Source of the DNA: Flavobacterium channae
GTDB taxonomy: Bacteria; Bacteroidota; Bacteroidia; Flavobacteriales; Flavobacteriaceae
Direction of reading: 5' to 3'
Assembly (NCBI RefSeq): GCF_021172165.1
Contig: NZ_CP089096.1
Location: forward strand, 930,001-994,000
DNA: 64,000 nt
Positions within the stretch are counted from its first letter, which is position 1; every line of letters starts with the position of its first letter. The translations under genes and the position numbers were made by a program. Positions 7,832 to 47,890 of this stretch are shown here, one piece after another. The notes under the pieces were generated by a model, which saw only the letters and a program-made list of their open reading frames with translations, had not been told where the DNA came from and made no database searches.

Positions 7832-9640
7832 ATGAACAAACAAGACCTTATCTCAAAAATAAAACAGCTCGATGGCATTTCGCAAGACGAACGTGCTTAC
7901 CTAATCAATTTAGTAAATACTAAAAAGAAATACGGTTTGGTTTGGGAAGACAAACCAGAAGCTGTGGAAGAACAATTACGAGATAATTTACCAGTTTTAA
8001 AGGAAGTTAAAGACAAAGCAATTATCAATGGCGAGGACAATCCTAACCATATTTTAATAGAAGGCGACAATTTACACGCTCTTACTGCATTAACCTTTAC
8101 TCACGAAGGTAAAATTGATGTAATCTACATAGATCCTCCTTATAACACAGGAAATAAAGATTTCAAATACAACGACACTTTTGTAGATAAAGAAGACAGC
8201 TACCGTCACAGCAAATGGTTATCTTTTATGGATAAACGTTTGCGGATTGCAAAACGATTGCTAAGTGATAAAGGGGTTGTTTTTATTAGTATTGATGATA
8301 ATGAACAAGCACAACTTAGACTATTATGTAATGAGGTTTTAGGTGAAGATAATTTTATTACAAATATTATTTGGCAGAAAAAAACAGGTGCTTCAGATGC
8401 AAAAACTATTGATACTATTACTGAATATATTTCAGTATTTACTAAATCAAATTCATATCAAACAGAAATTTTTAATAGAAATAGAGACTCATATGATTTA
8501 AAACGATACAGAAATCAAGACGAATATTTTGAACATAGAGGTCCTTACTATTTAGACAGTTTAGATAGAGGTGGTTTACGATATAGTGATTCTTTAAATT
8601 ATGGGATTAAATGCCCTGATGGAACAATTTGTTTTCCAAATGGAAGAACTGAATTTATAAATGATGGTTGGACTTGGAAGTGGGGTAAATCCAAGTTAGA
8701 ATGGGGTATAAAAAATAAATTTATAGACTTTAGAAAAGCTGATAAAAAGGCTTCTGGATGGACTGTTTGCTACAAAAATTATCTCAATGTTGATAACGAG
8801 AATAATTTAATTGATCGTTCTGCACCGCTTAAAAATATGATAATTGATATTAAAAATGCTGATGCAGCTGCTGATATAAAAGAAATTTTCACTGATAATA
8901 TTTTTAAATATACTAAACCAGTTAAATTAATTCAGCGTATAATTAATTTTTCTAATAATTCTAACTCTATAATCCTCGACTTCTTTGCAGGCTCTGGTAC
9001 AACGCTTCATGCAACTATGGCATTGAATGCAGAAGATGGTGGGAATCGTCAGTGCATTTTAGTAACCAACAACGAAAACAATATTTGCGAAGAAGTAACT
9101 TACGAAAGAAACAAACGCGTTATTCAAGGATATACCAATGCCAAAGGAGTTGCTGTAGAAGGTTTAAAAAACAATAATTTGCGCTATTACAAAAGCGAGT
9201 TTGTAAGTCGTGATACCTCGTTAAAAAACAAACGCGAATTAACCTATTTAGCTACAGAACTATTATGTATCAAAGAAGATTGTTATACAGCGTTTCCTTC
9301 AAAAGAAAAATGGTTCAAAGCTTTTACTAGTAAATCAACTCAATTTATTGTGATCTATGATGAAATGCGTATTGAAGATAGTTTCGAAATCATTGAAGCA
9401 TTGCATACTCAAAAAACAAACGATAACCCTGTAAAAGTATATGTATTTAGCCATGGTCAATATCCTTTCACGGAAGACTTTGAAGAGGTTTTGCCATTAA
9501 TTACCCTTTGTGCATTACCAGATGCTATTTACAAAGCGTATCAAAATGTGTTGCCTAAAAAGAAACGTGAAGTTGTTCCTGTGTTAGAGGAAGATGCAGT
9601 AGGCGAAGAAGAAAATTTGTTCAATCAAGACGCCCATTAA
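7832..9640 (+). CDS. mod: Type III restriction-modification methyltransferase (Mod)
   Basis: A 602-residue N6-adenine DNA methyltransferase of the beta class. DPPYNTG (~residues 101-107) precedes the SAM-binding motif FFAGSGTT (~383-390), with a ~200-residue target-recognition region between them. Mod of type III systems methylates one strand of a short asymmetric site and gives specificity to the Res subunit. The central region (8.36-8.95 kb) is more AT-rich than the conserved ends, as expected for an exchanged specificity domain. The gene is complete. It lies upstream of abi and res on the same strand. Confidence 0.93.
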   Translation: MNKQDLISKIKQLDGISQDERAYLINLVNTKKKYGLVWEDKPEAVEEQLRDNLPVLKEVKDKAIINGEDNPNHILIEGDNLHALTALTFTHEGKIDVIYIDPPYNTGNKDFKYNDTFVDKEDSYRHSKWLSFMDKRLRIAKRLLSDKGVVFISIDDNEQAQLRLLCNEVLGEDNFITNIIWQKKTGASDAKTIDTITEYISVFTKSNSYQTEIFNRNRDSYDLKRYRNQDEYFEHRGPYYLDSLDRGGLRYSDSLNYGIKCPDGTICFPNGRTEFINDGWTWKWGKSKLEWGIKNKFIDFRKADKKASGWTVCYKNYLNVDNENNLIDRSAPLKNMIIDIKNADAAADIKEIFTDNIFKYTKPVKLIQRIINFSNNSNSIILDFFAGSGTTLHATMALNAEDGGNRQCILVTNNENNICEEVTYERNKRVIQGYTNAKGVAVEGLKNNNLRYYKSEFVSRDTSLKNKRELTYLATELLCIKEDCYTAFPSKEKWFKAFTSKSTQFIVIYDEMRIEDSFEIIEALHTQKTNDNPVKVYVFSHGQYPFTEDFEEVLPLITLCALPDAIYKAYQNVLPKKKREVVPVLEEDAVGEEENLFNQDAH

Positions 9641-9695
9641 AATGTTAAATTCTTAAAAAAATGAATTTATATTATAAATACATAAAAAATAGTTG

Positions 9696-9703
9696 TACTT
9701 TTG
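9696..9703 (+). promoter_or_regulatory. Promoter -7 box for the Abi leader RNA
   Basis: TACTTTTG is a perfect TAnnTTTG box about 55 bp after the mod stop. No perfect -33 TTTG was seen. It would start transcription near 9710, at the 5' edge of a hairpin. Confidence 0.6.
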
Positions 9704-9707
9704 CCGG

Positions 9708-9765
9708 TAATAATACCTGCCATGCCTCTCTACGATGCACACTTTGGCAGGTTTTCGATTTTTAT
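9708..9765 (+). ncRNA. Probable abiF-type structured RNA upstream of the Abi_2 gene
   Basis: An 8-bp perfect stem ACCTGCCA (9715-9722) / TGGCAGGT (9745-9752) encloses a 22-nt loop that can form a smaller ATGC/GCAT pairing. TTTCGATTTTT follows, like an intrinsic terminator. It lies between a consensus promoter and an Abi_2/AbiF gene. A conserved abiF RNA motif upstream of such genes is known from comparative genomics. The structure is seen; family membership is inferred. Confidence 0.6.
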
Positions 9766-9790
9766 ACTGTATCCTTAAATCCTACAAGCC

Positions 9791-10684
9791 ATGCAGTATA
9801 AAAAAGCACCCATCACCATTACCGAACAAATAGAAAAATTACAAGCTAGAGGGCTTGAGATTGCTAATCCAGAAAAAGCAGCACACTATTTATCTAACAT
9901 CAGCTATTATCGTTTACGAGCTTACACCTATCCATTTCAAGATAACGAAGCAGAAAACCATCCCTTTAAAAAGAAAATTTCATTTGAAGAAATCATTCAT
10001 TTATACGTTTTTGATAGACAATTACGCTTGTTGATTTTTAATGCTATCGAAAAAATTGAGGTATCCTTCAGAACACAAATTATCTATCAATATGCTTTGG
10101 TTCATGGAAGTCATTGGCATTTAAAACCAGAATTGTATAACAACCCAGTGTACTTTGCTGAACATATAGCCAGTTTAGAAAAAGAAATAGACCGTAGTAA
10201 TGAAACGTTTATAAAACATTACAAAAATAAATATACAAAACCTACAAGTCCGCCAAGCTGGATGAGTCTTGAGGTTAGCAGTATGGGATTACTTTCCAAA
10301 CTATTTAAGAATTTAAAAAAAGATGCTACTAAAACTAGTGTAGCAACTTATTATGGTTTAAAAGATGTAGATGTATTATGCAACTGGATGTTTTGTTTTA
10401 GTATTTTAAGAAATACTTGTGCACACCATGGTAGAGTTTGGAACCGTAGGTTACCAGAAATAACCATTCCAAGAAAGACACTTTATCCATATGTAGAAAA
10501 CAAAACTTTTTACACAAATAAAACCTATGCTATACTTTGTAATATTATGTATATACTAAACAATATTAGTCCAAATCATAACTTTAAAGCAAATTTAGTA
10601 GCATTAATGAGTAATTGCCCTTTGGCACAAGAAAAAGAAATGGGTTTTCCAAAGAACTGGAAACAAGAACAATTTTGGAAGTAA
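9791..10684 (+). CDS. Abi_2 (AbiD/AbiF-like) abortive infection protein
   Basis: A 297-residue Abi_2 family protein. It begins with the typical TITEQIEKLQARGL segment and continues with YLSNISYYRLRAYTYPF. The HEPN-like centre includes FDRQLRLLIFNAIEKIEVSFRT, and near residues 210-222 it has the signature FSILRNTCAHHGRVWNR, an R-x4-6-H HEPN motif. HEPN Abi proteins act as RNases that stop growth on phage infection. It sits between mod and res, 8 bp before res, so it is likely co-transcribed with res, and it has a structured leader RNA that may restrain it. Confidence 0.9.
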   Translation: MQYKKAPITITEQIEKLQARGLEIANPEKAAHYLSNISYYRLRAYTYPFQDNEAENHPFKKKISFEEIIHLYVFDRQLRLLIFNAIEKIEVSFRTQIIYQYALVHGSHWHLKPELYNNPVYFAEHIASLEKEIDRSNETFIKHYKNKYTKPTSPPSWMSLEVSSMGLLSKLFKNLKKDATKTSVATYYGLKDVDVLCNWMFCFSILRNTCAHHGRVWNRRLPEITIPRKTLYPYVENKTFYTNKTYAILCNIMYILNNISPNHNFKANLVALMSNCPLAQEKEMGFPKNWKQEQFWK

Positions 10685-10691
10685 ATAATTT

Positions 10692-12992
10692 ATGATACAT
10701 TTAAAAAATTACCAAGAAGAAGCCGTAAACGACCTTACGAAAAACCTATATAAATTATTAAAAAAACCAGGTGCAAGACAAAATTTAATTTTCAAAGCAC
10801 CCACAGGTTCAGGTAAAACCGTAATGATGGCATCATTACTTAACAAGTTTTGTGAAGAATTACCAGAACGCTATGAATTAGAAAAACGAAAAGCAGCTTT
10901 TATTTGGATAGCACCTAACAAATTGTACATTCAAAGTTACAACGCTATGAAAGGCTTTTTTGCCGAAATGCGTTCCATAAAACCTATTTTCTTTGAAGAT
11001 GTTTCAAATGATGAATTACTACCAAACGAAGTGTTGTTTGTAAATTGGGAAAGCATCAATAAAGAGAAAAACACGATGATTAAAGAAAATGAAACCAATA
11101 AAAATCTTTATAGTTTCATTAATAAAGCCAAATTAAACGATACAGAAATCATTGTCATTATAGACGAAGAACACATGTTTGCGAATACAAAAACAGCAAA
11201 ACGTGCCAATGAAGTATTACAAAAAATATATCCAAAAGTAGAAATTAGGGTATCGGCAACACCTACAACTAGTAGTGATTACAGAACTTTGGTAGAGCGT
11301 CAAGACGTTATTGCTGAAGAAATGATTAAAGAAGGAATTATTTTAAATCCAGCTTTAGATACCATACAACAACAAGGACGTTCATTAGAAGAAATTTTAT
11401 TAGAGCAAGCGTTAGCAAAAAGAGAAGAATTACGTCAAGCCTATGAAAATTTAGGTGTAAAAATCAATCCTTTATTGTTAATCCAGTTACCAAACGATTC
11501 TAGTGATAACAACACAGCCGATGATGAAAAATATATCGATATAGTATTACAAAACTTAGAAGTCAAATACAATATTACCGTTAATAATAACAAACTAGCG
11601 GTGTGGTTATCAGGGAGAAAAGACAATGTAGCCGATATTGAAAAACCAGATAATATGGTGGAAGTATTATTATTCAAACAAGCCATAGCTTTAGGTTGGG
11701 ATTGTCCTCGTGCAGGAGTTCTTTTAATTTTTAGAGAATTAAAAAGTACCACATTCACGATTCAAACGGTAGGTAGAATTTTGCGTATGCCGGAACAGAA
11801 GCATTATCCTAATCCATTATTAAATCAAGGATATGTTTTTACCAATTTAAGTAAAAATCAAATAGAAATAGTTCAAGATGATATGAGTTATATCACCATG
11901 AACAAGGCTCGTAGAATTGAAAACTACATGCCAGTTTATTTAGATTCTACTTACATCAATACTCGTATTGTTAGAAATCGTTTAGGGGCAAAATTTAGAA
12001 CTGCTTTGTATGAAATTGCAGAATTAAATTGGGAAGTAAAAAGAGAAATAGGTTCAGACCATTTTTTCGAAATCAATAAGCAATTACTAAAAAAGCGATT
12101 CATCAACACGGATATTAATACCATAGAAATTGTAATTCCTGAAAATGTATTACTAACTGGTGAGGTGGAAACACAATTAGTTACAGAAACAGCTCGTTTT
12201 GCCAAAACGCCTAGTGAATTAGCGCGTTTGTTTAGAGATTTTTGTCGTTCATTAACGGCTCCTTATGCAGCGGTCGATAGTACTCCTGTTTTAGAAGGAG
12301 CTATGAAATATTTCTTTGAAGATTATTTTGGTATCATCGAGTATGATGCTATTAAAATAATGTTGTTTAACGATAACCAACCTATTTTCATCGAGTTAAT
12401 TGAAAAAGCAAAGGAGCGTTATCAAGAAATGCAAGAAGAAAAAGCAAACAAAGCCACAAAAGATATTCAAAATTACAAATGGGAAGTTCCTGTTGAAAGA
12501 ATCTATAATGAATTATATGATGAAAAAGAGAATGTAGAAAAACATGCATTAGAACCTTTTTATGAATACAAAAGAGCTTCTTCACCTGAGGTTAGATTTG
12601 CTGCATATTTAGAGGAACAAAAAGAAAATCTACATTGGTGGTATAAAAATGGAGAAAAAGCAAAAGAGCACTTTGCTGTACCTTATGAGGATTATCTAGG
12701 CAAACAAAGTTTGTTTTATGTTGATTTTGTGATACTAAATAAAGCGGGAATTACTTGTTTATTCGATACCAAAACAGCAGGTAGTGACCCAGCCAATGCT
12801 CATTTAAAACACAATGCACTAATAGATTTTATTGCAGAAAGAAATGAAAAAGGACATAAAACAATTGGAGGAATATTAATTCCTAAAGATAATAATGGAA
12901 CAACAACTTGGTGGTATTGTAAAAACAAAATCACCAATACAAAAGATACGAACGGTTGGGATAGATTTGACCCTGTTAACGCAAAAGAATAA
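10692..12992 (+). CDS. res: Type III restriction enzyme Res subunit (helicase-nuclease)
   Basis: A 766-residue SF2 translocase-nuclease. Motif I APTGSGKT (~36-43), motif II IIDEEH (~157), motif III SATPTT and motif VI VGRILRMP are present. The C-terminal region has a PD-(D/E)xK core (VDFVILNKAG then LFDTKTAG, ~677-695). It cuts DNA beside two inversely oriented unmethylated Mod sites after ATP-driven movement. It is shorter than classic EcoP1I-type Res (~970 aa) but has all core parts. It forms an operon with mod and abi. Confidence 0.92.
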   Translation: MIHLKNYQEEAVNDLTKNLYKLLKKPGARQNLIFKAPTGSGKTVMMASLLNKFCEELPERYELEKRKAAFIWIAPNKLYIQSYNAMKGFFAEMRSIKPIFFEDVSNDELLPNEVLFVNWESINKEKNTMIKENETNKNLYSFINKAKLNDTEIIVIIDEEHMFANTKTAKRANEVLQKIYPKVEIRVSATPTTSSDYRTLVERQDVIAEEMIKEGIILNPALDTIQQQGRSLEEILLEQALAKREELRQAYENLGVKINPLLLIQLPNDSSDNNTADDEKYIDIVLQNLEVKYNITVNNNKLAVWLSGRKDNVADIEKPDNMVEVLLFKQAIALGWDCPRAGVLLIFRELKSTTFTIQTVGRILRMPEQKHYPNPLLNQGYVFTNLSKNQIEIVQDDMSYITMNKARRIENYMPVYLDSTYINTRIVRNRLGAKFRTALYEIAELNWEVKREIGSDHFFEINKQLLKKRFINTDINTIEIVIPENVLLTGEVETQLVTETARFAKTPSELARLFRDFCRSLTAPYAAVDSTPVLEGAMKYFFEDYFGIIEYDAIKIMLFNDNQPIFIELIEKAKERYQEMQEEKANKATKDIQNYKWEVPVERIYNELYDEKENVEKHALEPFYEYKRASSPEVRFAAYLEEQKENLHWWYKNGEKAKEHFAVPYEDYLGKQSLFYVDFVILNKAGITCLFDTKTAGSDPANAHLKHNALIDFIAERNEKGHKTIGGILIPKDNNGTTTWWYCKNKITNTKDTNGWDRFDPVNAKE

Positions 12993-13214: not shown

Positions 13215-16200
13215 ATGGCTATACTACACGAAGATATTTTTGGAGGAGGAAAAGCAATCGAAATCATTGTTAGATGGCACGATATTTTAATTACCGATTT
13301 TAATAGAAGCAACACCACAACAATAGAACAGATAAAATCACTTCTAAAAGATGTTGAATATAAGACCTACTTTTTAAAAGTAAATGACAAAGAACAAAAA
13401 ATTGTTATTCCTTTCGAAGCTGAGGGGTTTCAATTAGACCTTGTTGTAGTATGGGATGCACAAACTTTTAGTTATAAGGCAGCTGTTAAAAGTAAAAAGA
13501 AATCAAAGATTGTTCAACCTATTGCATTACCTCAAGATAGTAAATACTATATCGAAGAAGTTTGTAAATTGATTTTTATAGATCAAAACGAATCTCGTTT
13601 TCCTATTATTGAACAAAAAAATCTCTACGAAAGAATCAATAACTTAGAAATTGCTCCTATTGCTAAATTAGAAAACGATAGAGAAATTTGGTACAAATGG
13701 ATTGAAGCACAAGACTTGTTATTACAACGAAATGCCCAACCCTTTAAAGTTAGAAAATACCACCATCCAGTTGAATTCAATAATGAAAAAGGAATTACAA
13801 CAAAATACAAGTTCAAAGTTGATTTAGAAGTTAAAGAAAGTAGAGAATACAAAGAGGTTGAAGAAGAATTACTAAATGAATTTAGTATCAAAGAAACATT
13901 TGATAAAGAAGGAAACATCTTTTTAAAATTTGATGACATCTACCGTGGTTTAGATGCGGTAATTCATAAAAAATTCAACCAAATAATTGAAAGAGAAAAA
14001 TCAATTGGGGCAATATTAAAATTAAAGCCAATATCTATTTCAACAAGATTTAAAAATGTTTTCAAGGCGCTAAACTATGATATTGATTGTAAAACAGTAG
14101 AAATTGAAAAGAAAGAAAGAAAAACAGTTCTATTAGAAGTTACGGCTAACAAAGTCCCTTTTGAAACACTTCAATCTTATTTTGATAGTCAAAATTATGA
14201 GCTAAAAGAAGTGGTGGGTGAATTTTTAGTACTTTGTAATTCAGACGTATTAGAGAGTAAAAGAAATGAACTTTTGGAAAAAGGTCAAGTACTGCCTAAA
14301 CCAAGCAATAATGTTTTCAAAATCACTACTGAAAACGAAGAAGATTTGACAGTTTTTAATTGGACATTGAAAAAGATTTTTGGAAAAGATAAAGTTAGAA
14401 TTAGAAAAAAATACTACTATCAAAAAAAACGAGTTGAATCAGAAAATAAAGTAATTTCAAAATTCACAGAGGAATTCTGGAATGATATTAAAAGAGATTT
14501 ATATTTTTTAGATTTTAATGTGGTTGTAAACGAACTTTCTGATACTATTTCATTTGATTTTGAAACAAATGAAGAATTTTTCGAAAAGTTTAAAAAAATA
14601 AGAGAGATAAATAAATTTGATTTTAGTTTATCTCCAACAGATCCTGAATTTAAATTTAAAGTAAAAACCAATTTGGTTAAAACCAAAACAGAAAAACAAG
14701 TTTTACAAGACAGAATTCACGAGTTAGCCAATGTAGAATTTCTAATTGATACTTCTAAAAGTGAAAAAAATAATAGTTACCTATCAATTGGTAAATTAAA
14801 TGCGTATGAATCTGACACAACAAGCTTAACATTTTCACTGGCATTACGCGGTAAAGAAGATAAAAAAATAGTAGCTAAACTATTGGACTATTTAGAGGAT
14901 AATAAACCAATTCGTGAAGTATTTCCTAATTTGAAAGGAGACCAAGCAAAAACAAATTGGTTAAAACAAGCTATGGCTAAAATTGTAGCACCTACAGATA
15001 GACCAAATGGCAAATCAGTAAACCCTCGATTGGGTGAATTTATTTTTGATTCAAGCAAATCAGAAGAAATTTTTAAAGATCTAACACCGCAAAGTGAAGA
15101 GTGGGAAGCAATAAGAAAAAATGAACTATTAAAATTAAACGATTCCCAGCGTAAAGCTATTCTAGCAGCTTTACATGCAAGAGATTTATGCTTGTTGCAA
15201 GGTCCTCCAGGAACAGGAAAAACCACCGTTATAGCAGAATTGATTTGGCAAATGATTAGTAAAAATCAAAACCAAAAGATATTGCTTACCTCTGAAACAA
15301 ACTTAGCGGTAGATAATGCGTTGGAAAAATTATTGAACAAAGACCATACGTTAGTTAAACCTCTTCGTTTTGGAAAAGATACCAAATTTGAGGAAGAAGG
15401 AAAAAAATATTCAATCAACAGAATAATGAAATGGTTGGATGATAATTTCGTTCCAGTTGAGTTTGAAGATGACTCATTAGAAGAAAATGATGAGGAAGAA
15501 GAATTGATACAAGACAACCCATATAACAATGCTATCCAAATTTGGATGAATCGTATTGCTGAGAAATCACATCAAACAAGCAATCATAAGTATGAAGCAG
15601 CTTTAAAAGATTGGGCTTTTGAATTGTCACAACCAACAGCTTCAGTGAAAAGGTTATTTAAAGATAAGTACTTTAAGTATGCTAATGTTATTGGTAGTAC
15701 ATGTAGTTCAAGTGGTAGTAATGATTTTGCTAAAAGTTACCAATTCATTTTCAATACTAAAGAGGCGTTCAAAATAGATGCAGGCGATAAACGTAATTGG
15801 ATAAATGTAGAATTTGATACGGTAATTATGGACGAAGCGAGTAAAGCAACTCCACCAGAAATGTTATTACCGCTGTGTTTTGGGAAAAAATCAATCGTTA
15901 TTGGCGACCATCGACAATTGCCACCAATGCTTAATGAAAAAGAATTTAAAGAAGCATTATTAGAATTGAATACGGAAAGAGCTTTAAAATTAGCGGAAGA
16001 AATTGATAAAGATTTTGTTGAAACAAGTCAATTTGAACGTCTTATTTTGAATCCAAAAGTGCCAAAATCAATTGCAGCTCGTTTAAATATTCAATATAGA
16101 ATGCATCCAAAAATTAATAATGTAATCAAACAATTTTATACGGGTGAAACAGATGAAGGTTTAGAACCTGCTCAAGAGTTAATTACACATGCCGATTCGG

Positions 16201-16853
16201 AAGATTTATCAAATCCTTTCTCAAGATATCACGGACTAATAAATCAAGGCTTTATAAAACCAGACGTGCATACTATTTGGATTAATGTAGACGAACCTGA
16301 AGAGTTAGTAAGTACTTCTAGAGTAAATGAAAAGGAAGTGGAAGCGGTAAAAAGAGCACTTACTTATTTGAAAAATGCAGAAGGTTTTGAGGAATATTTT
16401 AACCATTTTAACAGCATCAAAGACGAAGATAAACGACTACAAGAACAAGAAATTGGAATAATTAGTTTTTATGGTCAACAATTAAAAAAATTGATTGATG
16501 TTAAAAAATATGCTCAAAAAGATTTAAACATCCCTATCAGACTTAAAACAGTAGATAAATTCCAAGGAATGGAGAGAAATATTGTAATTGTCTCAACGGT
16601 TAGAAGTAATAAAATTTTAAAGGCAGGACTAATTGAAAAAAATCATGACATTGGTTTTGCTAAAGCTCCAGAACGTTTAAATGTGGCACTATCAAGGGCA
16701 AGAAGACTATTAATCGTTGTAGGTAATTTGAAGTTTTTCGAATCGTATAAAGACAAAAACGGAAATGCTATTTACAAAAACGCTATTGAAATTATTCGTC
16801 AAGAAGGATTAATAATTGATGATTACAAAAAACTTAACAAATACAATGCATAA
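13215..16853 (+). CDS. Large SF1 (UPF1/COG1112-like) helicase
   Basis: A 1212-residue protein. The first ~600 residues are a charged, coiled-coil-rich region of unknown fold. The rest is an SF1B helicase: motif I LQGPPGTGKTT (~661), motif II VIMDEASK (~871), motif III GDHRQLPP, motif IV QYRMHP, motif V VDKFQGMERN and motif VI NVALSRARR. All ATPase motifs are intact. COG1112-like helicases occur in several bacterial defence systems. It starts the seven-gene operon and overlaps the next gene by 8 bp (ATGCATAA), implying translational coupling. Its function here is unknown; defence is inferred from context. Confidence 0.88.
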   Translation: MAILHEDIFGGGKAIEIIVRWHDILITDFNRSNTTTIEQIKSLLKDVEYKTYFLKVNDKEQKIVIPFEAEGFQLDLVVVWDAQTFSYKAAVKSKKKSKIVQPIALPQDSKYYIEEVCKLIFIDQNESRFPIIEQKNLYERINNLEIAPIAKLENDREIWYKWIEAQDLLLQRNAQPFKVRKYHHPVEFNNEKGITTKYKFKVDLEVKESREYKEVEEELLNEFSIKETFDKEGNIFLKFDDIYRGLDAVIHKKFNQIIEREKSIGAILKLKPISISTRFKNVFKALNYDIDCKTVEIEKKERKTVLLEVTANKVPFETLQSYFDSQNYELKEVVGEFLVLCNSDVLESKRNELLEKGQVLPKPSNNVFKITTENEEDLTVFNWTLKKIFGKDKVRIRKKYYYQKKRVESENKVISKFTEEFWNDIKRDLYFLDFNVVVNELSDTISFDFETNEEFFEKFKKIREINKFDFSLSPTDPEFKFKVKTNLVKTKTEKQVLQDRIHELANVEFLIDTSKSEKNNSYLSIGKLNAYESDTTSLTFSLALRGKEDKKIVAKLLDYLEDNKPIREVFPNLKGDQAKTNWLKQAMAKIVAPTDRPNGKSVNPRLGEFIFDSSKSEEIFKDLTPQSEEWEAIRKNELLKLNDSQRKAILAALHARDLCLLQGPPGTGKTTVIAELIWQMISKNQNQKILLTSETNLAVDNALEKLLNKDHTLVKPLRFGKDTKFEEEGKKYSINRIMKWLDDNFVPVEFEDDSLEENDEEEELIQDNPYNNAIQIWMNRIAEKSHQTSNHKYEAALKDWAFELSQPTASVKRLFKDKYFKYANVIGSTCSSSGSNDFAKSYQFIFNTKEAFKIDAGDKRNWINVEFDTVIMDEASKATPPEMLLPLCFGKKSIVIGDHRQLPPMLNEKEFKEALLELNTERALKLAEEIDKDFVETSQFERLILNPKVPKSIAARLNIQYRMHPKINNVIKQFYTGETDEGLEPAQELITHADSEDLSNPFSRYHGLINQGFIKPDVHTIWINVDEPEELVSTSRVNEKEVEAVKRALTYLKNAEGFEEYFNHFNSIKDEDKRLQEQEIGIISFYGQQLKKLIDVKKYAQKDLNIPIRLKTVDKFQGMERNIVIVSTVRSNKILKAGLIEKNHDIGFAKAPERLNVALSRARRLLIVVGNLKFFESYKDKNGNAIYKNAIEIIRQEGLIIDDYKKLNKYNA

Positions 16854-19005
16854 AGAGTTAGACATAGAAATATACAAGCATTTAGAAAATGTCATGTCAA
16901 CAGGTGAAATCTACATAGGTCACCTAAATTATGATTTTATTTTTTCTAAAGTCAATTATTTAGCTACTTGTACAGAGGCTATTCCTTTTACTCCTTTTGA
17001 TAAAGTAATTTGTCAATTATTAACAATAGATGAACAATTGAGCTTTGAGCAAATTGGTGATATTTTGGGTATGAATGTTTATGAATCTTCAAATCCAAAA
17101 CGATATTTAGATGTTGCTGAAAAAGAAATTTTAATGGAAGCATTACAGTCTCTTGCTTCAGGTGAGTTTGGTAAAATGATTGAAGGTGGTGATATCAATT
17201 TTTCAAGATGCAGACTTACACCTACTGGAAGAGAATATGCTAAAATGAAATCTAAATTTAAAGTTACAATCAATAAACCCTTTGAATTATACTTTGATCA
17301 CACAACAGGTGATAATTTGAAGGCAAAAGAAAATTTTGAATTTACTAAAGGAATCGCAGTACATAACTATCTTGGAATTTCAATCGATTTTGAAGATGAA
17401 GATTTTATAAAAGAGATTGCAGCTACGCAAATCCCCGATATATACAATATTGAAAAGAAAAATTCTTTTACTGATGCAATAGTTGTAAGTAAACAAGATT
17501 TTTACAAAACATACCCCATTGCAATAACTTATGATAGTAACGAAAAGATTTTTAAGGCTTATTGTTTTGATGAGAAAAATAAAAAAATACAAAAATCATT
17601 TAGCCAATGGATAAATAATGACAGCTATGTCAAAGATGAAATCCTAGCAGCTTTAGATAGTAAGGAAACTGTAAAAACGGAAGTAAAATATAATGAAGTT
17701 TATGAAGAAGCTATAAGGCATATTGATAAAAACAATCCTTTAATTCAAGTAAAAAATGAGTTGTTAACTAAAGATATATTTGATGAATATTTCTTTTTAA
17801 ATAATTTTAGTTCTTTAGTCCCGCATCATAGCAAATATGATTTGTACATATGTTTAACATTTTGTTCTGAATCTATTTTTGACCAAATTTTTCAAATTTT
17901 ACAAAAAATTGAAAACATCGAATCTAAAATATTTATTGTATTTCCAGAAATTTTGAAAGATGAAGATGATGCTAGATATGAAAGTTTACTCGCTCTAGCA
18001 AATGATTCTGTTAATTTATTCATTACTAAAAAGAATGTAAAAAATTCGTTTTTCATAGTTGAAACAGATGAGGATGCAAATTATTATGAAATTGTAATTG
18101 GGCAAATAGGAAAATATTCCAAATCATTTTTCAATAAGAACAAATGGGATGATAGAGGAATTAAAATAAAAGATTACATCAAAACCGAGTTTTCTAATGA
18201 TTATGCACTAACAATCTGTGATGAAATAAATAGAAGTATTCAAAACGACATGGAAGAAGATATAGCATCAATTGAACAAATTGAAGAACTAGATTTTTAC
18301 AATGTAAAACTAAGAGTATTTGAAGGTTTAGGCATGTATGAAGAAACTATTGACGAAGCACTTCAATTGTTAGAGAGTTTTAAAGAAAACCGATTAGAAA
18401 GACTTGAAGAACAAATAATTGATAGTTTTGATGAAATTGAAGAAGATTTAGAGACGATTACTAATGAAAAAGAAGGATATAATCTAAAGAAAAAACTAGA
18501 AAAAATAAAAAATCAAATTAATAGCAACAATCAAAAGCTAATCAATCGTTTTGAACAAATTAAATTAAATATTGATAATAAAATTGAAGAATTTGAAGAA
18601 GCTAAAAGGGTATATCCTTTCATAATTGACACAAATATTTTCATAAATGATCCAGGCATAATTTCAAAAATTAATAAGAAACATAAAATAATCATTGCTG
18701 CCAAAGTATTGGATGAATTAGATGGTTTTAAAGCCAATCCACAACTCAAAGAAACGGCAACAAAAATTATTAGAAGTATATCTTCTTCAAAGAGTCATAA
18801 TATCCACAGAGCAAAAGCAAATTTAAATTTGTTACCACCAGATTTTAATAAAAGATCATCGGATAACATGATATTGGCTACGGCCTTAATGTATCAAGAT
18901 CAAAAAGGTTACTTAGTGACTGAAGATAAAGGACTAATTGAAAAAGCCAAAACAGTAGAAATGAAAGTCTTAAATTATCAAGAATTTGCAAATAAATTTT
19001 TATAA
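16846..19005 (+). CDS. PIN-domain protein of the helicase operon
   Basis: A 719-residue protein with no family I recognise in its first ~590 residues, apart from a Glu-rich coiled coil at ~500-590. The last ~125 residues are a PIN domain: IIDTNIF (first Asp), VLDELDG (Glu), SSDNMILATA (Asp) and TEDKGL (last Asp), the full acidic set of an RNase. ATG 16846 is chosen because it overlaps the helicase stop; an upstream in-frame non-ATG start at 16816 is unlikely. It probably cleaves RNA, in concert with the helicase; this is inference. Confidence 0.8.
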   Translation: MHKELDIEIYKHLENVMSTGEIYIGHLNYDFIFSKVNYLATCTEAIPFTPFDKVICQLLTIDEQLSFEQIGDILGMNVYESSNPKRYLDVAEKEILMEALQSLASGEFGKMIEGGDINFSRCRLTPTGREYAKMKSKFKVTINKPFELYFDHTTGDNLKAKENFEFTKGIAVHNYLGISIDFEDEDFIKEIAATQIPDIYNIEKKNSFTDAIVVSKQDFYKTYPIAITYDSNEKIFKAYCFDEKNKKIQKSFSQWINNDSYVKDEILAALDSKETVKTEVKYNEVYEEAIRHIDKNNPLIQVKNELLTKDIFDEYFFLNNFSSLVPHHSKYDLYICLTFCSESIFDQIFQILQKIENIESKIFIVFPEILKDEDDARYESLLALANDSVNLFITKKNVKNSFFIVETDEDANYYEIVIGQIGKYSKSFFNKNKWDDRGIKIKDYIKTEFSNDYALTICDEINRSIQNDMEEDIASIEQIEELDFYNVKLRVFEGLGMYEETIDEALQLLESFKENRLERLEEQIIDSFDEIEEDLETITNEKEGYNLKKKLEKIKNQINSNNQKLINRFEQIKLNIDNKIEEFEEAKRVYPFIIDTNIFINDPGIISKINKKHKIIIAAKVLDELDGFKANPQLKETATKIIRSISSSKSHNIHRAKANLNLLPPDFNKRSSDNMILATALMYQDQKGYLVTEDKGLIEKAKTVEMKVLNYQEFANKFL

Positions 19006-19020
19006 CTAAAAAAATAGAGT

Positions 19021-19659
19021 ATGTCTTGTTTTGAATCCTCAAAATTTCTTAGAAATCCACAAGTAATGAATCAAGAAGTGCTTATGAAAGCCTGTGATAA
19101 TTTGGGATGGAAATATGAAATAATAAATAACGAATTAGTGGTACTTAATGCCAATCAAAAAGAAAATTTAAGAGGCGAATACCTTTTAAAAGTTAAAGGT
19201 GATATGGTCAGCTACAACAATTATTACATCAAAAATGCTAAAGAATTTGTACTCGAATTACAAGATACTTTTTATGAATTAAACAGAATATATGCAAAAG
19301 AAACAATTCTAAAGGAGTTTGAAGCAGCAGGCTTTACATTCAAGAAAGATTATGATTTTATTGCTAATTCTGATGAAGTAGAACGTTTTTATATGGTGGG
19401 TTATTCTAAAATTGAAAATGAAGATGAAAAACGCACCGAAATTCAATTTACAATTTTAAATGATGGTACTGTAATAACAGATTCTAATTATATACCAGAA
19501 GATTTACATAAATTAGCAGATGAAGCAATGTCAAAAATTGATCATTCATTTGGTACAACAAGACGTGAAGGAATAGAAATTAAAAGGAAAGAAGTTCCAG
19601 AACGATATAAAACAAAATCATATTGTACAATCAATAATAAAATAATCGCTAAAAACTAA
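19021..19659 (+). CDS. DUF1257 / Ycf35-like protein
   Basis: A 212-residue soluble protein. Its N-terminal ~110 residues follow the DUF1257 (Ycf35) pattern: MSCFESSKF start, an LGWKYE turn, a strand-rich middle, and a YAKETILKEFEAAGF end that matches the Tyr-Ala...Ile...Gly-Phe close of the family. The C-terminal part is specific to this locus. In cyanobacteria and plastids Ycf35 is often linked with the AAA ATPase Ycf46; here the next gene is a Ycf46-like ATPase, 4 bp downstream. The biochemical role of the family is unknown. Assignment is by pattern. Confidence 0.65.
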   Translation: MSCFESSKFLRNPQVMNQEVLMKACDNLGWKYEIINNELVVLNANQKENLRGEYLLKVKGDMVSYNNYYIKNAKEFVLELQDTFYELNRIYAKETILKEFEAAGFTFKKDYDFIANSDEVERFYMVGYSKIENEDEKRTEIQFTILNDGTVITDSNYIPEDLHKLADEAMSKIDHSFGTTRREGIEIKRKEVPERYKTKSYCTINNKIIAKN

Positions 19660-19663
19660 TAAC

Positions 19664-21274
19664 ATGGACAATACATTTGAAGATATTAAAGATATGTTGA
19701 AAGCAAACTACCCTTTGCTTTATTTGACCACTTCTGAGTATGGTCGTGTTATGCAAAAATTAAGAAGAATTGCTTTTGAATTAGATTATTCATTTTATTC
19801 TTGGGATAATGTTGATGGTTTACAAACACATTTAAAAACACAAAACAATAGACTTGAAAAAGTAGAAAGACACAAGGCGTATGGAGAAACTAAGGGCTAT
19901 CAAGAACTTTTAGAATTCATAAAAAGAGATGCTGAGAGTACCGATAATAAGACCAAAGAAATTTATATTGTAGAAGATTTCCATAAATATTTTAGAGATG
20001 ATAAAGTAATTGTTTACTTGCGTAAACTATCTTCCATATTAAAAGCGTATGACAAACATTTAATTCTACTTTCTCCTTTTCTAAAATTACCAGATGAGTT
20101 AGAAAAGTATCTTACAATTGTCAATGTTCCACTACCGGACAAGGATGATTTAAAAACTAGATTATCTACTATCATTTCAAATGAAAATGTAAATCCCGAT
20201 TTAGAAAACTTTCTAATCGATTCTGCTTTAGGAATGACAGATATGGAAGCAGATTTAGCTTTCAGGTTAGCCAAAGAAAAAGTAGGATTAAATAGTAAAG
20301 AAGCAGCGAGAATTATAGCTAATGAAAAAGAACAGATAATTAAAAAAAGTGGAATTTTAGATTACTATCAAGTAAATGAGGAACTTGAAAAAAGTGTTGG
20401 AGGATTAAATAATCTAAAAAATTGGTTAAAACAAAGAAGTAAAGCTTTCGAAAGAAAAGCAAAAAACTTTGGTTTAAAAGAACCAAAAGGAATACTTCTA
20501 TTAGGGGTTCCAGGTTGTGGTAAGAGTTTAACAGCTAAATGTGTGGCTACTGAGTGGAAACAACCATTATTAAGATTGGATATTGGAAAAGTATTTCAAG
20601 CTGAAGTAGGAAGTAGTGAGAACAATATACGTTTAGCAATTGCTACAGCCGAAGCTGTTGCTCCATGTGTTTTATGGATTGATGAAATTGAAAAAGGACT
20701 GAGTGTAGGCGGTGGTGAAAAAGATGGAGGAACTAATTCAAGAGTTTTTTCTACAATTTTAACTTGGATGCAAGAAAAAACAAAACCAGTTTTTGTTGTG
20801 GCAACAGCAAACAATATAAGTGATTTACCACCTGAATTATTGAGAAAAGGACGATTTGATGAAATTTTCTTTGTGGATCTACCTTCAAAAGAAGAAAGAA
20901 AAAATATCTTAAAAATACACTTAGATAAAAATGGTCAAACAAACATTACCGACTTTGATAATTTAGCAGATAAAACAAAACATTTTAATGGTGCTGAAAT
21001 TGAAGAAGTTGTAAAAGAGGCTATGTTTCTTTCTTATATAGACAACCCAGAAAACCATCAAATTTCTATTATTCATTTAGAAAAAGCAATCGAACAAATT
21101 GTACCTCTTGCACAAACAATGAAGAAAAAAATTGATGGATTAAGAGAATGGGCTTCAACTAGAGCTAGATTAGCAAGTGCTGAGAAAAATAATGAAAAAT
21201 TTGAAGTCGCAGAAAGTGATTCTGAAAATTTAATAATTCAAACAAAACGAGAAAAAGAAGAAGATATTTTCTAA
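19664..21274 (+). CDS. Ycf46-like AAA+ ATPase
   Basis: A 536-residue protein. The N-terminal region has the YPLLYLTTSEYGRV segment typical of Ycf46 (positions ~17-30). The AAA+ core has Walker A GVPGCGKS (~282-289), Walker B LWIDEIEKG (~336), sensor-1 ATANN and an RKGRFDEIFFV arginine-finger region. The ~60-residue charged tail is locus-specific. AAA+ proteins of this type remodel other proteins; a partner is likely the adjacent Ycf35-like protein. It is co-directional and tightly packed with its neighbours. Confidence 0.88.
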   Translation: MDNTFEDIKDMLKANYPLLYLTTSEYGRVMQKLRRIAFELDYSFYSWDNVDGLQTHLKTQNNRLEKVERHKAYGETKGYQELLEFIKRDAESTDNKTKEIYIVEDFHKYFRDDKVIVYLRKLSSILKAYDKHLILLSPFLKLPDELEKYLTIVNVPLPDKDDLKTRLSTIISNENVNPDLENFLIDSALGMTDMEADLAFRLAKEKVGLNSKEAARIIANEKEQIIKKSGILDYYQVNEELEKSVGGLNNLKNWLKQRSKAFERKAKNFGLKEPKGILLLGVPGCGKSLTAKCVATEWKQPLLRLDIGKVFQAEVGSSENNIRLAIATAEAVAPCVLWIDEIEKGLSVGGGEKDGGTNSRVFSTILTWMQEKTKPVFVVATANNISDLPPELLRKGRFDEIFFVDLPSKEERKNILKIHLDKNGQTNITDFDNLADKTKHFNGAEIEEVVKEAMFLSYIDNPENHQISIIHLEKAIEQIVPLAQTMKKKIDGLREWASTRARLASAEKNNEKFEVAESDSENLIIQTKREKEEDIF

Positions 21275-21293
21275 TTTTCAAAAACATAGAACT

Positions 21294-21506
21294 ATGAGTA
21301 AAGGTTTAGATACAGCATTCATTCATTACGGCATCCGTAAAGAAGATATGGATATCATTAAAAATCTAACAGAAGAACAAGGCTTAGATTTTGAATGGTT
21401 ACAAGAAAATATATTAAAAGAATTCCACAATCTAAAAATCAATAACGAAGATATTGACAGTAAAAAGATTGAAAAAATCATCGAAAAGGCGTTAAACAAA
21501 ATATAA
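21294..21506 (+). CDS. Small acidic protein of the ATPase operon
   Basis: A 70-residue helical protein with motif GLDFEWLQENIL. It resembles the small proteins annotated as DNA modification system-associated small protein beside DndD-like ATPases. It lies 5 bp before the DndD-like gene, so the two probably act together. Function is unknown. Confidence 0.65.
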   Translation: MSKGLDTAFIHYGIRKEDMDIIKNLTEEQGLDFEWLQENILKEFHNLKINNEDIDSKKIEKIIEKALNKI

Positions 21507-21511
21507 GGATT

Positions 21512-23515
21512 ATGCTAATTACCAGAATTATTGCCAAAAACTTTAAAACCTATCGCGAGCTCGATTTAGACTTAACGGTAAACGAAGAGCAGCCTATTAT
21601 TTTAATTGGTGGTGAAAATGGTGGTGGTAAAACCACCTTGTTTCAAGCCATTTACTATGCCCTTTACGGTTTAAAAGTGAAAGACTTTGAACACTTCAAC
21701 AAATTACAAAACGCAGGAGAAAGAGCAAAAAATGAAGGAAATAGTTCTAATAAAATCGAACTTGAAATTCACTTCACAGGTAAAGTGCTTCATAATGATT
21801 ACAAATACATAATCAAGCGTTTATACACCATCAATGCACAAAACAGCCCAGTTGAAGCAGTAACACTAAATCTTAACGGTGATATATTTCAATATGGTAC
21901 AGCAACGCCTCATGCAGAAAGAGTAAAAAAAGAAGCCGAAGTAAATAAAATCATCAAAGCCAATCTGCCACAAGAATTGAGTAAATATTTCTTGTTTGAT
22001 GCTATGGAAGCAGGTAATTTATTAAAAGACGAATACCTGAACAGAGTCATCAAAGAAAATATTGAAAACGTAATGGGGTTCAATAAATACATTCAATTAG
22101 GCAATGCAACTAATATTTTAACACAAGAATACATTGCACAAGGCATTGAAATTGAAGAAGAACGTAATCAATACAAAAATCTATTAGAAGAAAAGAAGAA
22201 AATTGAAGAATTAATAGTAGCAACCAACACGCATTACGAACGTGCGTTAAGCTATTCATTAAGTCAAAAGGAGTTCTATGAAAGTGCTAAAGAAGGTAAA
22301 AATCTACAAGCAAACATCAAAGAGCAAATACAACTGGTAGAAAGAAAAATAGAAGACATTCTCAACAGGGAAACATTATTTATAGAACAATCGGAAAGAT
22401 TCTTAAATGATATAGAAATTCAGGTATTTATACCTAAACTCATTTCCATCATTCAAAACGAAATCGAGTTAATCTTAGCAGAAAAAAGTCAAGAAAACAA
22501 CAATGATTTTATTGAACCAGAGCATATTACTAAAATTTCAGAAAAAGTAATCGCATTCTTAAAAGAAAACAATTTAATAGAATCAGAACTAACAAACGAA
22601 CAAAAAGGATTACTTAAAGAATACATCATAAAAAAATCAAATCAAGACAATACCAAAACCGATTATGATTTTATCGATAAAAACGATGTAACTAATTTGG
22701 AACAATTACTAGGTTGGTCTAGCATCAATCAATTTAACATAATAGAACAGCAAAAAGAAAGTTTGGAAAAAGAACTAGCTACTTTACCAAATTTAAAAAT
22801 TCAGTTGTTAGATTTAAGAAAAAGTGATGTTGGCGGTGGCGATGAAATCATTCAAAGCTTCGAAGCAAACGAGCTCAAAATAAAAGAGCTTAAAGAAACC
22901 ATCAAAGGTTACAAATCCGATATTGAAAAATTAGATACTAAAATCAAAAAATTCGACTTATCAGATGAAGAAGTTCCTAATCCAAAATTAGAATTACTTA
23001 AAAAATTAGGGCCATTATTTACAAAAGTATCAAACGCGCTATTGGTTAACAAAAAGTCACGTATTGAAGAAGCCATGAAAAATGACTTAAATACAACATT
23101 GGTGGCTTATGAAAATCAAATTGATCGTGTAGAACTATCAGAAGATTTAAGTAATCTTTCCTTCAAAATTTACCACAAAGCAGGTAACGAAATCTATTTA
23201 GAGGAATTGAATGCAGCATCAAAACAAATTATTATCCAGGTACTTTTAAAATCTTTACATTATTTCGGAGACTATAATCCACCTGTAATGATTGATACAG
23301 TAATGGGATATTTAGATGAAAGTAGTAGAGCTTCTCTTTTAGAAAACTATTTCCCTAAGTTATCACATCAAACCATTTTGTTAAGTACCGATAGCGAAAT
23401 AAGAAAACATATTGATTTAGAAAAAATTGAAAATTTTATTGCAAAAAAATTCACATTAGTTCGCGATAAAGAAAATCAATTAACAGAAGTAGTTGAAGGG
23501 TATTTCCCAAATTAA
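21512..23515 (+). CDS. DndD-like SMC/Rad50-type ATPase
   Basis: A 667-residue ABC ATPase of SMC/Rad50 layout. Walker A is GGENGGGKTT (~33-42), followed by long coiled-coil arms (~210-500). The C-terminal half-site has signature-like LNAASKQI and Walker B PPVMIDTVMGYLDE. DndD nicks DNA and drives phosphorothioation in Dnd systems. No DndA/IscS or DndC (PAPS-reductase-like) gene is seen here, so it more likely acts as a sensor or effector ATPase. The helicase, PIN and AAA+ genes upstream support a composite defence complex. Confidence 0.82.
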   Translation: MLITRIIAKNFKTYRELDLDLTVNEEQPIILIGGENGGGKTTLFQAIYYALYGLKVKDFEHFNKLQNAGERAKNEGNSSNKIELEIHFTGKVLHNDYKYIIKRLYTINAQNSPVEAVTLNLNGDIFQYGTATPHAERVKKEAEVNKIIKANLPQELSKYFLFDAMEAGNLLKDEYLNRVIKENIENVMGFNKYIQLGNATNILTQEYIAQGIEIEEERNQYKNLLEEKKKIEELIVATNTHYERALSYSLSQKEFYESAKEGKNLQANIKEQIQLVERKIEDILNRETLFIEQSERFLNDIEIQVFIPKLISIIQNEIELILAEKSQENNNDFIEPEHITKISEKVIAFLKENNLIESELTNEQKGLLKEYIIKKSNQDNTKTDYDFIDKNDVTNLEQLLGWSSINQFNIIEQQKESLEKELATLPNLKIQLLDLRKSDVGGGDEIIQSFEANELKIKELKETIKGYKSDIEKLDTKIKKFDLSDEEVPNPKLELLKKLGPLFTKVSNALLVNKKSRIEEAMKNDLNTTLVAYENQIDRVELSEDLSNLSFKIYHKAGNEIYLEELNAASKQIIIQVLLKSLHYFGDYNPPVMIDTVMGYLDESSRASLLENYFPKLSHQTILLSTDSEIRKHIDLEKIENFIAKKFTLVRDKENQLTEVVEGYFPN

Positions 23516-23527
23516 TACTAGGAAGTT

Positions 23528-24208
23528 ATGGCAGCAATAGAAACAGGTTTAAGACAAGCGGAGGCACTAAATTCAAAAATGAATGATTTGCGTGAACGTT
23601 TAGAAAAATATATCAATTTAAAACACTATACAGACAATCATAAAAACGTGACCCCTAAAGGTAATGCTAAATTGATGCGTATGTGTTTAATCGCAGGTTT
23701 GTCCGATACAGAAAAAAGAACAAAAGACGATTTGAACATGCAAATGTCTTCAAATAGTATTCACCCAACGCTATTTACAGTTCATAATTTAAACGGAATA
23801 CTAGCATCGTTAATCAAGTTAAGATACCACGATTTAGATATCAATTGGGAAGATAATATCTCAAAAAGTAAAGTGGTAAATGCTGAAATATTTAGAGGTT
23901 TTGACATTCTGATGAAAGGTGATACTTTACATGATTGGTTAAAAGTAAGTACTGCAGCGTCTATAAAAGCAGGTCAAATCCCATTCTTAAATTTAAATAT
24001 CGGTAGTTATGATGGCGACATCAATGCCTATTTAGATATGAATAGTAAAAATGTAACCAATACACAAATTTTGGTGGCAGGTACAACAGGTTCTGGTAAA
24101 TCAAATTTATTAGCAGTATTAATGAACGAAATGCGTTCACTATCTGTAGAAAGTAATTATCCGGTTAACTTCCTATTCTTTGACTACAAATGTACGTCTT
24201 CAAACTAA
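23528..24208 (+). pseudogene. DndE/HerA-like ATPase, truncated by an insertion sequence
   Basis: The first ~120 residues are helical and contain VTPKGNAKLMRMCLIAGL, reminiscent of DndE. The rest opens as a HerA/FtsK-type ATPase with Walker A GTTGSGKS (~184-191) and LFFDYK. The insertion sequence begins at 24191, so the last codons and the stop are IS bases. HerA-type proteins need several hundred more residues, including Walker B, so this copy should be dead. No recognisable 3' part appears beyond the IS, which implies a deletion as well as an insertion. Confidence 0.8.
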
Positions 24209-31025: not shown

Positions 31026-31160
31026 TTGGTAACGTCTCGTGGCTTTAAGAAGTTGGGGATTTTGTAAGCCCAAACTTTCGGTTAATCACGAACTTCAAAA
31101 GTACAAAACAAAGTTTAAATTAATGACTAAACCCCCAATTTCTTAAAACCGCTGTTAGTG
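31026..31160. repeat. attC-like site C, last of the first array
   Basis: TTGGTAAC to GTTAGTG, arms GTGGCTTTAAGAAGTTGG and CCAATTTCTTAAAACCGC. Right end GTTAGTGGC is the inverse of GCCACTAAC at site D. Holds TACTTTTG on the minus strand. Confidence 0.85.
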
Positions 31161-31169
31161 GCTGTATTT

Positions 31170-31844: not shown

Positions 31845-31870
31845 TTTCTGTTGATTTCGGTTAATATAGC

Positions 31871-47887: not shown

Positions 47888-47890
47888 AGG

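What the first reader, a model, noticed from the sequence alone, without database searches (positions are those of the whole stretch)
13215..24208. Candidate undescribed defence operon: helicase, PIN, Ycf35, Ycf46, DndD, HerA
Seven co-directional, tightly packed genes beside a type III R-M operon encode an SF1 helicase, a PIN nuclease, a Ycf35/Ycf46 pair, a small protein, a DndD-like SMC ATPase and a DndE/HerA-like ATPase. DndD/DndE-like parts occur without DndA or DndC, so phosphorothioation is unlikely. I do not know a named system with this set.
Basis: partly seen in the sequence, partly recalled or inferred. Interest (0 to 1): 0.85.

Follow-up and report, generated by a model that had tools for sequence, protein, structure and literature searches.

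The report
Mobile four-gene helicase-nuclease defence operon
The seven genes are really two units: a conserved, intact four-gene set (a UPF1-like helicase, a nuclease with a swappable cutting domain, a small protein and an AAA+ motor) that moves between Bacteroidota, partly as an unusually large integron cassette, and a separate DndD/HerA-like unit that an insertion sequence has broken.

Summary
Core: SF1 helicase, PIN protein, Ycf35-like, Ycf46-like AAA+. This order is kept in 12 of 12 loci fetched with the PIN gene and in 2 of 2 further genomes. The small gene/DndD/HerA tail follows in 1 of the 10 loci with at least 2 kb downstream, the near-identical Flavobacterium urocaniciphilum block, where HerA is intact and UvrD, DarT and ADP-ribosylglycohydrolase genes follow. 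In the window an IS3-type element cuts HerA after about residue 221. The core is under purifying selection and mobile: its block is 99.7% identical in Lutibacter and Lacinutrix, with breaks in attC-like sites, and in L003 it lies between two textbook attC hairpins as an 8.6-kb cassette. The window itself is an integron array (23 attC-like hairpins). Gene B shows nuclease exchange: three of four PIN-less relatives compared carry a PLD (HKD) motif, which eight PIN members lack. Best reading: an undescribed helicase-nuclease anti-invader system that works like Mokosh but lacks its kinase. Anti-phage activity is inferred, not shown. The Ycf35, DndD and DndE labels failed their model tests.

The parts
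13215..16853 (+). core gene A: SF1 helicase, UPF1/SMUBP2-like, 1212 aa; helicase motifs look intact (read from sequence)
   Evidence: PF13086 2.3e-44, PF13087 5.9e-40; PADLOC MkoA 1.4e-103; PDB NAM7/UPF1/SMUBP2
16816..19005 (+). core gene B: conserved N-terminal domain, degenerate PLD-like domain, C-terminal PIN_4 nuclease; likely start about 16846
   Evidence: PF13638 1.8e-20; D605 and E634 in 27 of 27, D683 and D704 in 24 of 27 aligned sequences; HxK and GSxN absent
19021..19659 (+). core gene C: 212-aa Ycf35-like small protein; C-terminal part weakly DUF2997-like
   Evidence: AlphaFold2 model mean pLDDT 84.2, fold search could not be run
19664..21274 (+). core gene D: Ycf46-like AAA+ ATPase, 536 aa
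   Evidence: PF00004 1.1e-30; several homologues named SpoVK/Ycf46/Vps4 family
21294..21506 (+). 70-aa small protein, first gene of the tail module
   Evidence: 100% identical in L002; not scanned for families
21512..23515 (+). tail: DndD-like ABC/SMC ATPase, 667 aa
   Evidence: TIGR03185 181.3 bits, cut-off 245.85; PADLOC DndD 5.8e-58; dN/dS 0.024 against L002
23528..24208 (+). tail: truncated HerA-like ATPase, 226-aa ORF of a protein that is 526 aa in L002
   Evidence: PF01935 6.8e-07; intact copy in L002
24191..25690 (-). IS3-type insertion (OrfB 24237-25247, OrfA 25268-25621) that ends the operon; outer ends approximate
   Evidence: family read from sequence
7832..12992 (+). type III methyltransferase, AbiD-like gene, type III restriction subunit upstream
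   Evidence: PADLOC and Pfam
840..1954 (.). two attC-like hairpins left of the operon
31031..62396 (.). integron array: 21 attC-like hairpins
45435..46520 (-). integron-integrase-like tyrosine recombinase, 361 aa
   Evidence: NF040815 217.5 bits (cut-off 220), TIGR02249 198.9 (cut-off 265)

Best explanation
The conserved unit is a four-gene helicase-nuclease system. Shown: the fixed gene order, kept active-site positions, purifying selection, two nuclease types on one chassis, and horizontal transfer, including as an attC-bounded cassette. Inferred: it protects the host against phages or other invaders. In the likeliest mechanism the UPF1-like helicase travels on single-stranded RNA (or DNA) of the invader, and gene B, tethered through its conserved N-terminal domain, cuts it with its PIN domain (a PLD site in relatives). 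The Ycf46-like AAA+ ATPase with its Ycf35-like partner loads, remodels or restrains the helicase-nuclease pair so that it fires only on infection. The small gene, DndD-like and HerA-like genes belong to a second, neighbouring module (with UvrD, DarT and ADP-ribosylglycohydrolase in F. urocaniciphilum) that is broken here by an insertion sequence.
For: Core order in 12 of 12 loci (gene A runs off the contig end in L004, L010, L011) and in L024, L025. Tail only in L002 of these 14. Block transfer: window 10692-24190 is 97.7% identical to F. urocaniciphilum, while one 16-kb region of the genome matched that genome in pieces, the ten longest at 70-86%. L005/L012 99.7% over 8.7 kb in different genera, with breaks at AAC/GTT of attC-like sites. 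L003 core between attC hairpins 1410-1533 and 10073-10196. PIN acidic positions kept. HKD-type motif in 3 of 4 PIN-less relatives compared (L024, P0108, P0115; P0105 has neither nuclease), absent in 8 of 8 PIN members compared. dN/dS 0-0.36. Defence neighbours: L002 GmrSD + type III RM, L013 type II/IIG + GmrSD, L025 type IIG, L012 TIR protein, L024 DUF4007/SspB-like. Rare: 3 of 395 phylum genomes, own counted.
Against: No phage challenge exists. For L003, L005, L006, L008, L009 and L010 I could assign no defence neighbour, so defence context is not universal. The random-region control still had matches to 8 PADLOC families, probably 3 of 78 proteins. The RNA target is inferred from relatives; relatives in the PDB list also include DNA2. 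Three of 27 aligned gene-B sequences lack D683 and three lack D704. Seven regions around Ycf46 relatives of 31-46% identity showed no core partner, so the ATPase type is not specific to this system. The flanking repeats of L005, L012, L025 and L006 do not reach the hairpin threshold used for the window.
Confidence: 0.6

Rival explanations
1. The seven genes (plus UvrD, DarT and ADP-ribosylglycohydrolase in F. urocaniciphilum) are one defence system, in which DndD/HerA scan DNA and the core cuts.
For: Same strand, gaps of 4-19 bp after gene B; transferred together as one 13.5-kb block between two Flavobacterium species.
Against: Tail in 1 of 10 loci with at least 2 kb downstream; a DndD-HerA-like pair without the core in L028 and HerA relatives without DndD in L026, L027; the core travels without the tail.
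Confidence: 0.08
2. It is a Mokosh subtype in which the kinase was replaced by a Ycf46-like AAA+ pair.
For: Helicase best PADLOC match is MkoA, 1.4e-103, and MkoC matches at 5.1e-34; a PLD-type gene B exists in L024; a paper states that Mokosh degrades viral transcripts (PMC11291487, passage).
Against: No kinase among the window genes scanned, and none in the first 25 of 55 Pfam families of 78 neighbour proteins; the PADLOC match covers helicase residues 449-1196 only; models of other systems match the same helicase (PLuB, ProA, Hhe).
Confidence: 0.15
3. It is an RNA surveillance, RNA repair or stress-tolerance cassette of the host, not an antiviral system; integrons carry many stress genes.
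For: A UPF1-like helicase plus PIN nuclease recalls mRNA decay (EST1A PIN is a weak profile match, E 0.018); IF2_N-like N-terminus in L024 gene B (my reading of unnamed ORFs of about 900-1100 aa); several loci without an assigned defence neighbour.
Against: Patchy presence (3 of 150 relatives, 3 of 395 phylum genomes, own counted), recent transfer, two nuclease types and faster evolution of gene B fit conflict better than housekeeping.
Confidence: 0.17

Closest known systems
Mokosh (MkoA/MkoB, MkoC)
   Same: UPF1-like SF1 helicase with a long N-terminal part; a nuclease partner (PLD recalled for MkoC)
   Different: no kinase found; PIN or PLD on a separate gene B; Ycf35-like and Ycf46-like genes that Mokosh does not have (composition of Mokosh recalled, not read here)
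Dnd / PbeABCD / DndFGH (Rakesh, Aravind, Krishnan 2024, PMC10853773: abstract, outline and passages seen)
   Same: DndD-like ABC ATPase followed by a HerA/FtsK-type ATPase in the tail module
   Different: DndD below its curated cut-off, no DndE match and no DndA/DndC among the genes scanned; in F. urocaniciphilum UvrD, DarT and ADP-ribosylglycohydrolase follow instead
Ycf46-DUF1257-DUF2997 gene sets on plasmids (Geminocystis, Bacillus licheniformis, Planktothrix, Manganitrophus)
   Same: Ycf46-like AAA+ (35-42% identical) with small partner proteins
   Different: no helicase-plus-PIN pair annotated with them (the Manganitrophus stretch has a UvrD helicase and an HNH gene a few kb upstream); here gene C is one 212-aa protein
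Integron-borne phage defence (Kieffer et al., Darracq et al.; seen only as references in PMC13092281)
   Same: defence genes carried as attC-bounded cassettes
   Different: four genes and about 8.6 kb in one cassette, in Bacteroidota; cassette sizes in those papers not read

Membership tests
Mokosh | MkoA/MkoC-type helicase | tested here: met
   PADLOC MkoA 1.4e-103 over residues 449-1196; domain-level match only
Mokosh | Ser/Thr kinase partner or domain (recalled) | tested here: not met
   no kinase match for the window genes scanned at 7832-24208, the 70-aa ORF excepted
Mokosh | PLD nuclease (recalled, type II) | tested here: inconclusive
   motif present in L024/P0108/P0115, absent in the window protein
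Dnd phosphorothioation system | DndD equivalog TIGR03185 | tested here: not met
   181.3 against 245.85 bits
Dnd phosphorothioation system | DndE | tested here: not met
   no family named DndE in the lists for the fragment or the intact relative (Pfam and PADLOC)
Dnd phosphorothioation system | DndA/DndC elsewhere in the genome | not tested
   only genes at 7832-24208 were scanned for this
Ycf35 (DUF1257) | PF06868 match | tested here: not met
   12.4 bits, cut-off 22.2; 4 of 35 homologues match weakly, best 0.0057; hhalign score reached by 10 of 150 shuffles and by the reversed profile
DUF2997 | profile similarity of the C-terminal part of gene C | tested here: inconclusive
   hhalign score 26.5, 0 of 150 column shuffles reach it, probability only 29%; the Pfam model gave no match there
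Ycf46 | AAA+ domain behind the Ycf46-type N-terminal domain | tested here: inconclusive
   PF00004 met, some homologues so named, near full-length tblastn matches to plasmid genes beside DUF1257; no dedicated model used
Chromosomal integron (window) | array of attC sites | tested here: met
   23 hairpins at -26 kcal/mol; 0,0,0,0,1 in 5 shuffles; 1 in ten random 16-kb regions; at -19: 36 against 6, 5, 4
Chromosomal integron (window) | integron integrase | tested here: inconclusive
   TIGR02249 198.9 of 265, NF040815 217.5 of 220
Integron cassette (core operon in relatives) | attC directly on both sides | tested here: met
   L003; in L005, L012, L025 weaker AAC..GTT repeats with matching breakpoints; L010 has one site after gene D, its other side is off the contig
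Integron cassette (core operon in the window) | attC directly on both sides | tested here: not met
   nearest sites at 1825-1954 and 31031-31156

The most novel reading that the evidence does not exclude
A new immune system in which Ycf46, an AAA+ ATPase known as an unexplained plastid/cyanobacterial reading frame, is the regulatory motor of a helicase-nuclease complex. Its nuclease is exchangeable (PLD or PIN) on a conserved tether, and the whole four-gene system travels through Bacteroidota as a single 8.6-kb integron cassette. In F. urocaniciphilum it sits beside a DndD-HerA module whose modification step may be DNA ADP-ribosylation (DarT with ADP-ribosylglycohydrolase) in place of phosphorothioation.
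Probability: 0.35. Interest if true: 0.8.

Novelty: new variant of a known kind. Interest (0 to 1): 0.62.

Why it matters
If it is antiviral, it adds a helicase-nuclease system with an AAA+ controller, gives a function-suggesting setting for a Ycf46-type ATPase, and offers a natural PLD/PIN exchange for testing what the effector must do. The cassette finding suggests that integrons in Bacteroidota can move whole multi-gene systems, not only single small genes, so defence searches that rely on defence islands would miss such copies.

Tried and rejected
Rejected: one seven-gene system (see rivals). Rejected: Ycf35 as a tested label. Tried: DUF1257 search in 148 phylum genomes gave 2 marginal matches that look like chance. 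Tried: gene B in viral contigs, none of 37 candidate stretches encodes a relative; SF1 helicase in phages at 1e-20, 1 distant record, and on plasmids, 43 records, none covering 80% of it; DndD-like and HerA-like proteins on plasmids, no match at 1e-20. Tried: seven regions around Ycf46 relatives: no core partner by blastp in any; in L092 the Ycf46 ORF itself was lost to my ORF filter, and four of the seven were read by eye in part. Of five plasmid hits of the helicase looked up: beside DarT in Hymenobacter, beside DarT and ADP-ribosylglycohydrolase inside a BREX locus in Nostoc, beside Qat genes in Aliarcobacter, and two cyanobacterial records; these are distant and not the core.

Hairpins: a first, ungapped scan failed (3 hits). 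The threshold of -26 was set after a scan at -19, and the R'-box pattern was taken from the sites themselves, so both describe rather than discover them. At -26 the sites beside the core in L005, L012, L025 and L006 are not flagged, and none is found in L002, L005, L007, L008, L009, L012, L013 and L029; at -19 L008 and L013 are at shuffle level. The L005, L012 and L025 sites are called attC-like from repetition, AAC/GTT ends and breakpoints. The L006 repeats recur between genes but do not fold as attC, so L006 is not counted. The L030 site 17944-18080 was set aside as a terminator-like palindrome.

Defence-neighbour control: 89 neighbour proteins of 90 aa or more from 11 loci (core matches set aside by the script); 78 were scanned together, the 11 dropped being three L013 restriction proteins and the L013 DNA polymerase (scanned apart) and seven others. 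PADLOC families matched at 1e-8: 78 for neighbours (25 shown), 8 for 78 proteins from ten random regions of two genomes. I count at least seven neighbour proteins behind the first and probably three behind the second; the tally does not name members, so the contrast is modest.

A fold comparison of the gene C model and a model of gene B were not obtained.
Full report
Observation. Seven ORFs lie head to tail on the plus strand at 13215-24208, gaps -38, 15, 4, 19, 5 and 12 bp. Pfam, NCBIfam and PADLOC give: gene A, an SF1 helicase (AAA_11/AAA_12), closest in the PDB to NAM7/UPF1 and SMUBP2; gene B, PIN_4 at its C-terminus; gene C, nothing; gene D, an AAA ATPase; a 70-aa ORF (not scanned); a DndD-like ATPase; a HerA-like ATPase. 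Upstream are a type III methyltransferase, an AbiD-like gene and a type III restriction subunit. The last gene is a fragment: a 226-aa ORF of a protein that is 526 residues long in F. urocaniciphilum. An IS3-type element follows, and the genome search matched only query residues 1-243.

Host. The window is at 930001-994000 of a 2.81-Mb single-contig genome.

Two modules. With an alignment of 27 gene-B proteins, a scan of bacterial genomes gave 12 loci in Bacteroidota. All 12 carry A-B-C-D in this order; gene A is cut by the contig start in L004, L010 and L011. Two further genomes found through gene C, G029 (L024) and G368 (L025), carry all four. Several loci are close to one another (L005, L012, L025, L013; L006, L008), so independent cases are nearer ten than fourteen. 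The tail (small gene, DndD, HerA) follows only in L002. Of the ten loci with 2 kb or more beyond gene D (L002, L003, L006-L009, L012, L013, L024, L025), one has it. In L002 the tail goes on with UvrD, DarT and ADP-ribosylglycohydrolase genes. A DndD-HerA-like pair without the core is in L028, and HerA relatives without DndD in L026 and L027. Gene C is rare: 3 of 150 relatives and 3 of 395 phylum genomes, the window's own counted.

Gene B carries two kinds of nuclease. PIN positions D605 and E634 (assigned by me as the acidic site) are kept in 27 of 27 aligned sequences, D683 and D704 in 24 of 27. In L024 gene B has no PIN (sequence). It has an IF2_N-like start (weak matches to other ORFs of about 900-1100 aa, read by me as IF-2), the conserved N-terminal domain and a PLD-type SPWI...HxKN...GSxN motif. 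Of four PIN-less relatives compared, three have the motif (L024, P0108, P0115) and one has neither (P0105); it is absent from 8 of 8 PIN members compared. The same chassis thus carries one nuclease or the other. Only L024 of the PLD type was seen in its operon.

Profile comparison with DUF1257 proteins from plasmid Ycf46 gene sets was equalled by 10 of 150 shuffles and by the reversed profile; with DUF2997 it was not equalled in 150, at a probability of 29%. Annotated DUF1257 and DUF2997 genes sit beside Ycf46-like genes in plasmids of Geminocystis, Bacillus, Planktothrix and Manganitrophus; three other plasmid hits looked up did not show the pair (Rhodococcus has DUF2997 alone).

Selection and mobility. 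dN/dS over four pairs is 0-0.11 for A, C and D and 0.16-0.36 for B; for DndD, one pair, 0.024. Window 10692-24190 is 97.7% identical to F. urocaniciphilum, whereas one 16-kb region matched that genome in separate pieces, the ten longest at 70-86% identity (only one region compared). L005 (Lutibacter) and L012 (Lacinutrix) share 8.7 kb at 99.7%.

Integron. Repeats beginning ...AAC and ending GTT... separate genes in L005, L012 and L025. Identity between L005 and L012 starts at the GTT of unlike sites; L012 and L025 share the site after gene D and part right after its GTT. These sites are weak hairpins (about -19 to -24 kcal/mol) and are not flagged at the stricter threshold. L003 is clearest: the core at 1860-9843 lies between hairpins 1410-1533 and 10073-10196, with two more at 717-840 and 11267-11455. 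L010 has one about 250 bp after gene D. The window has 23 such hairpins at -26 kcal/mol or better (2 at 840-1954, 21 at 31031-62396); five shuffles gave 0,0,0,0,1 and ten random 16-kb regions gave one in all. A pattern taken from their ends occurs 24 times against 1.45 expected, 20 of them at such sites by my count. An integrase-like recombinase is at 45435-46520, below the integron-integrase cut-offs. The array surrounds the operon, but in the window the core is not a tidy cassette: the nearest sites are about 11 kb left and 10 kb right of it.

Context. Defence-type neighbours were found at L002 (GmrSD, type III RM), L013 (type II and IIG, GmrSD), L025 (type IIG and specificity), L012 (TIR-related PDC-S73), L007 (viperin-like, 2.1e-12) and L024 (DUF4007; SspB/SspC assigned by me from the tally). 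For the others I assigned none. The PADLOC contrast with random regions is described in Tried and rejected.

Literature. PMC10853773 (abstract, outline, passages) treats DndD/DndE/HerA systems; its main text has no Ycf or DUF1257. PMC12839542 (listing; six search terms absent from its text), PMC11291487 (passages), PMC12278908 (one passage), PMC9503650 (passages), PMC8618304 (passages: integrons known in Bacteroidota, phage-resistance cassettes known), PMC13092281 (passages and references). Of searches I saw the capped listings; judged by titles, abstract starts and term counts none shows this gene set. Subscription papers and preprints outside the library are not covered.

Mechanism. Best reading: the helicase engages invader RNA or ssDNA, gene B cuts, AAA+ and gene C control. 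Parts, order, active-site positions and mobility are shown; target, trigger and protection are inferred. It works like Mokosh in its helicase-nuclease logic, but is not filed as Mokosh because no kinase was found.

Noticed in passing
window 840-1954 and 31031-62396, recombinase 45435-46520: The window lies in a chromosomal integron array of a Flavobacterium, with 23 attC-like hairpins and an integrase-like tyrosine recombinase.
   Followed up: partly
window 28672-30733 (minus): Gene trio resembling a bacterial ubiquitin-like operon: a repeat protein, an E2-like protein and a JAB protease (PADLOC JAB 8.9e-14; the other two had no PADLOC match, and are read from sequence).
   Followed up: partly
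window 26594-28513 (minus): Elongation-factor-like protein that reads like a tetracycline ribosomal protection protein, next to the insertion sequence; label read from sequence, no model run.
   Followed up: no
L002 16713-22066: HerA-like ATPase, UvrD helicase, DarT and ADP-ribosylglycohydrolase in a row after DndD: a possible DndD-type system using ADP-ribosylation.
   Followed up: partly
L035 (Nostoc plasmid pC052_C) 7322-14070: SF1 helicase, DarT and ADP-ribosylglycohydrolase inside a BREX locus, between pglX and pglZ.
   Followed up: no
L082, L085, L086, L087: Ycf46-like AAA ATPase with DUF1257 and DUF2997 genes on plasmids of unrelated phyla, function unknown.
   Followed up: partly
L006 3632-20400: Seven copies of a 192-nt repeat (eight of a 106-nt one) between genes around the core, 10,079 bp between the two copies that flank it; it does not fold as attC.
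   Followed up: partly
window 31874-33449: A direct repeat of at least 300 nt with 100% identity, 1276 bp apart, over the ends of two 170-aa genes: probably a recent cassette duplication.
   Followed up: no
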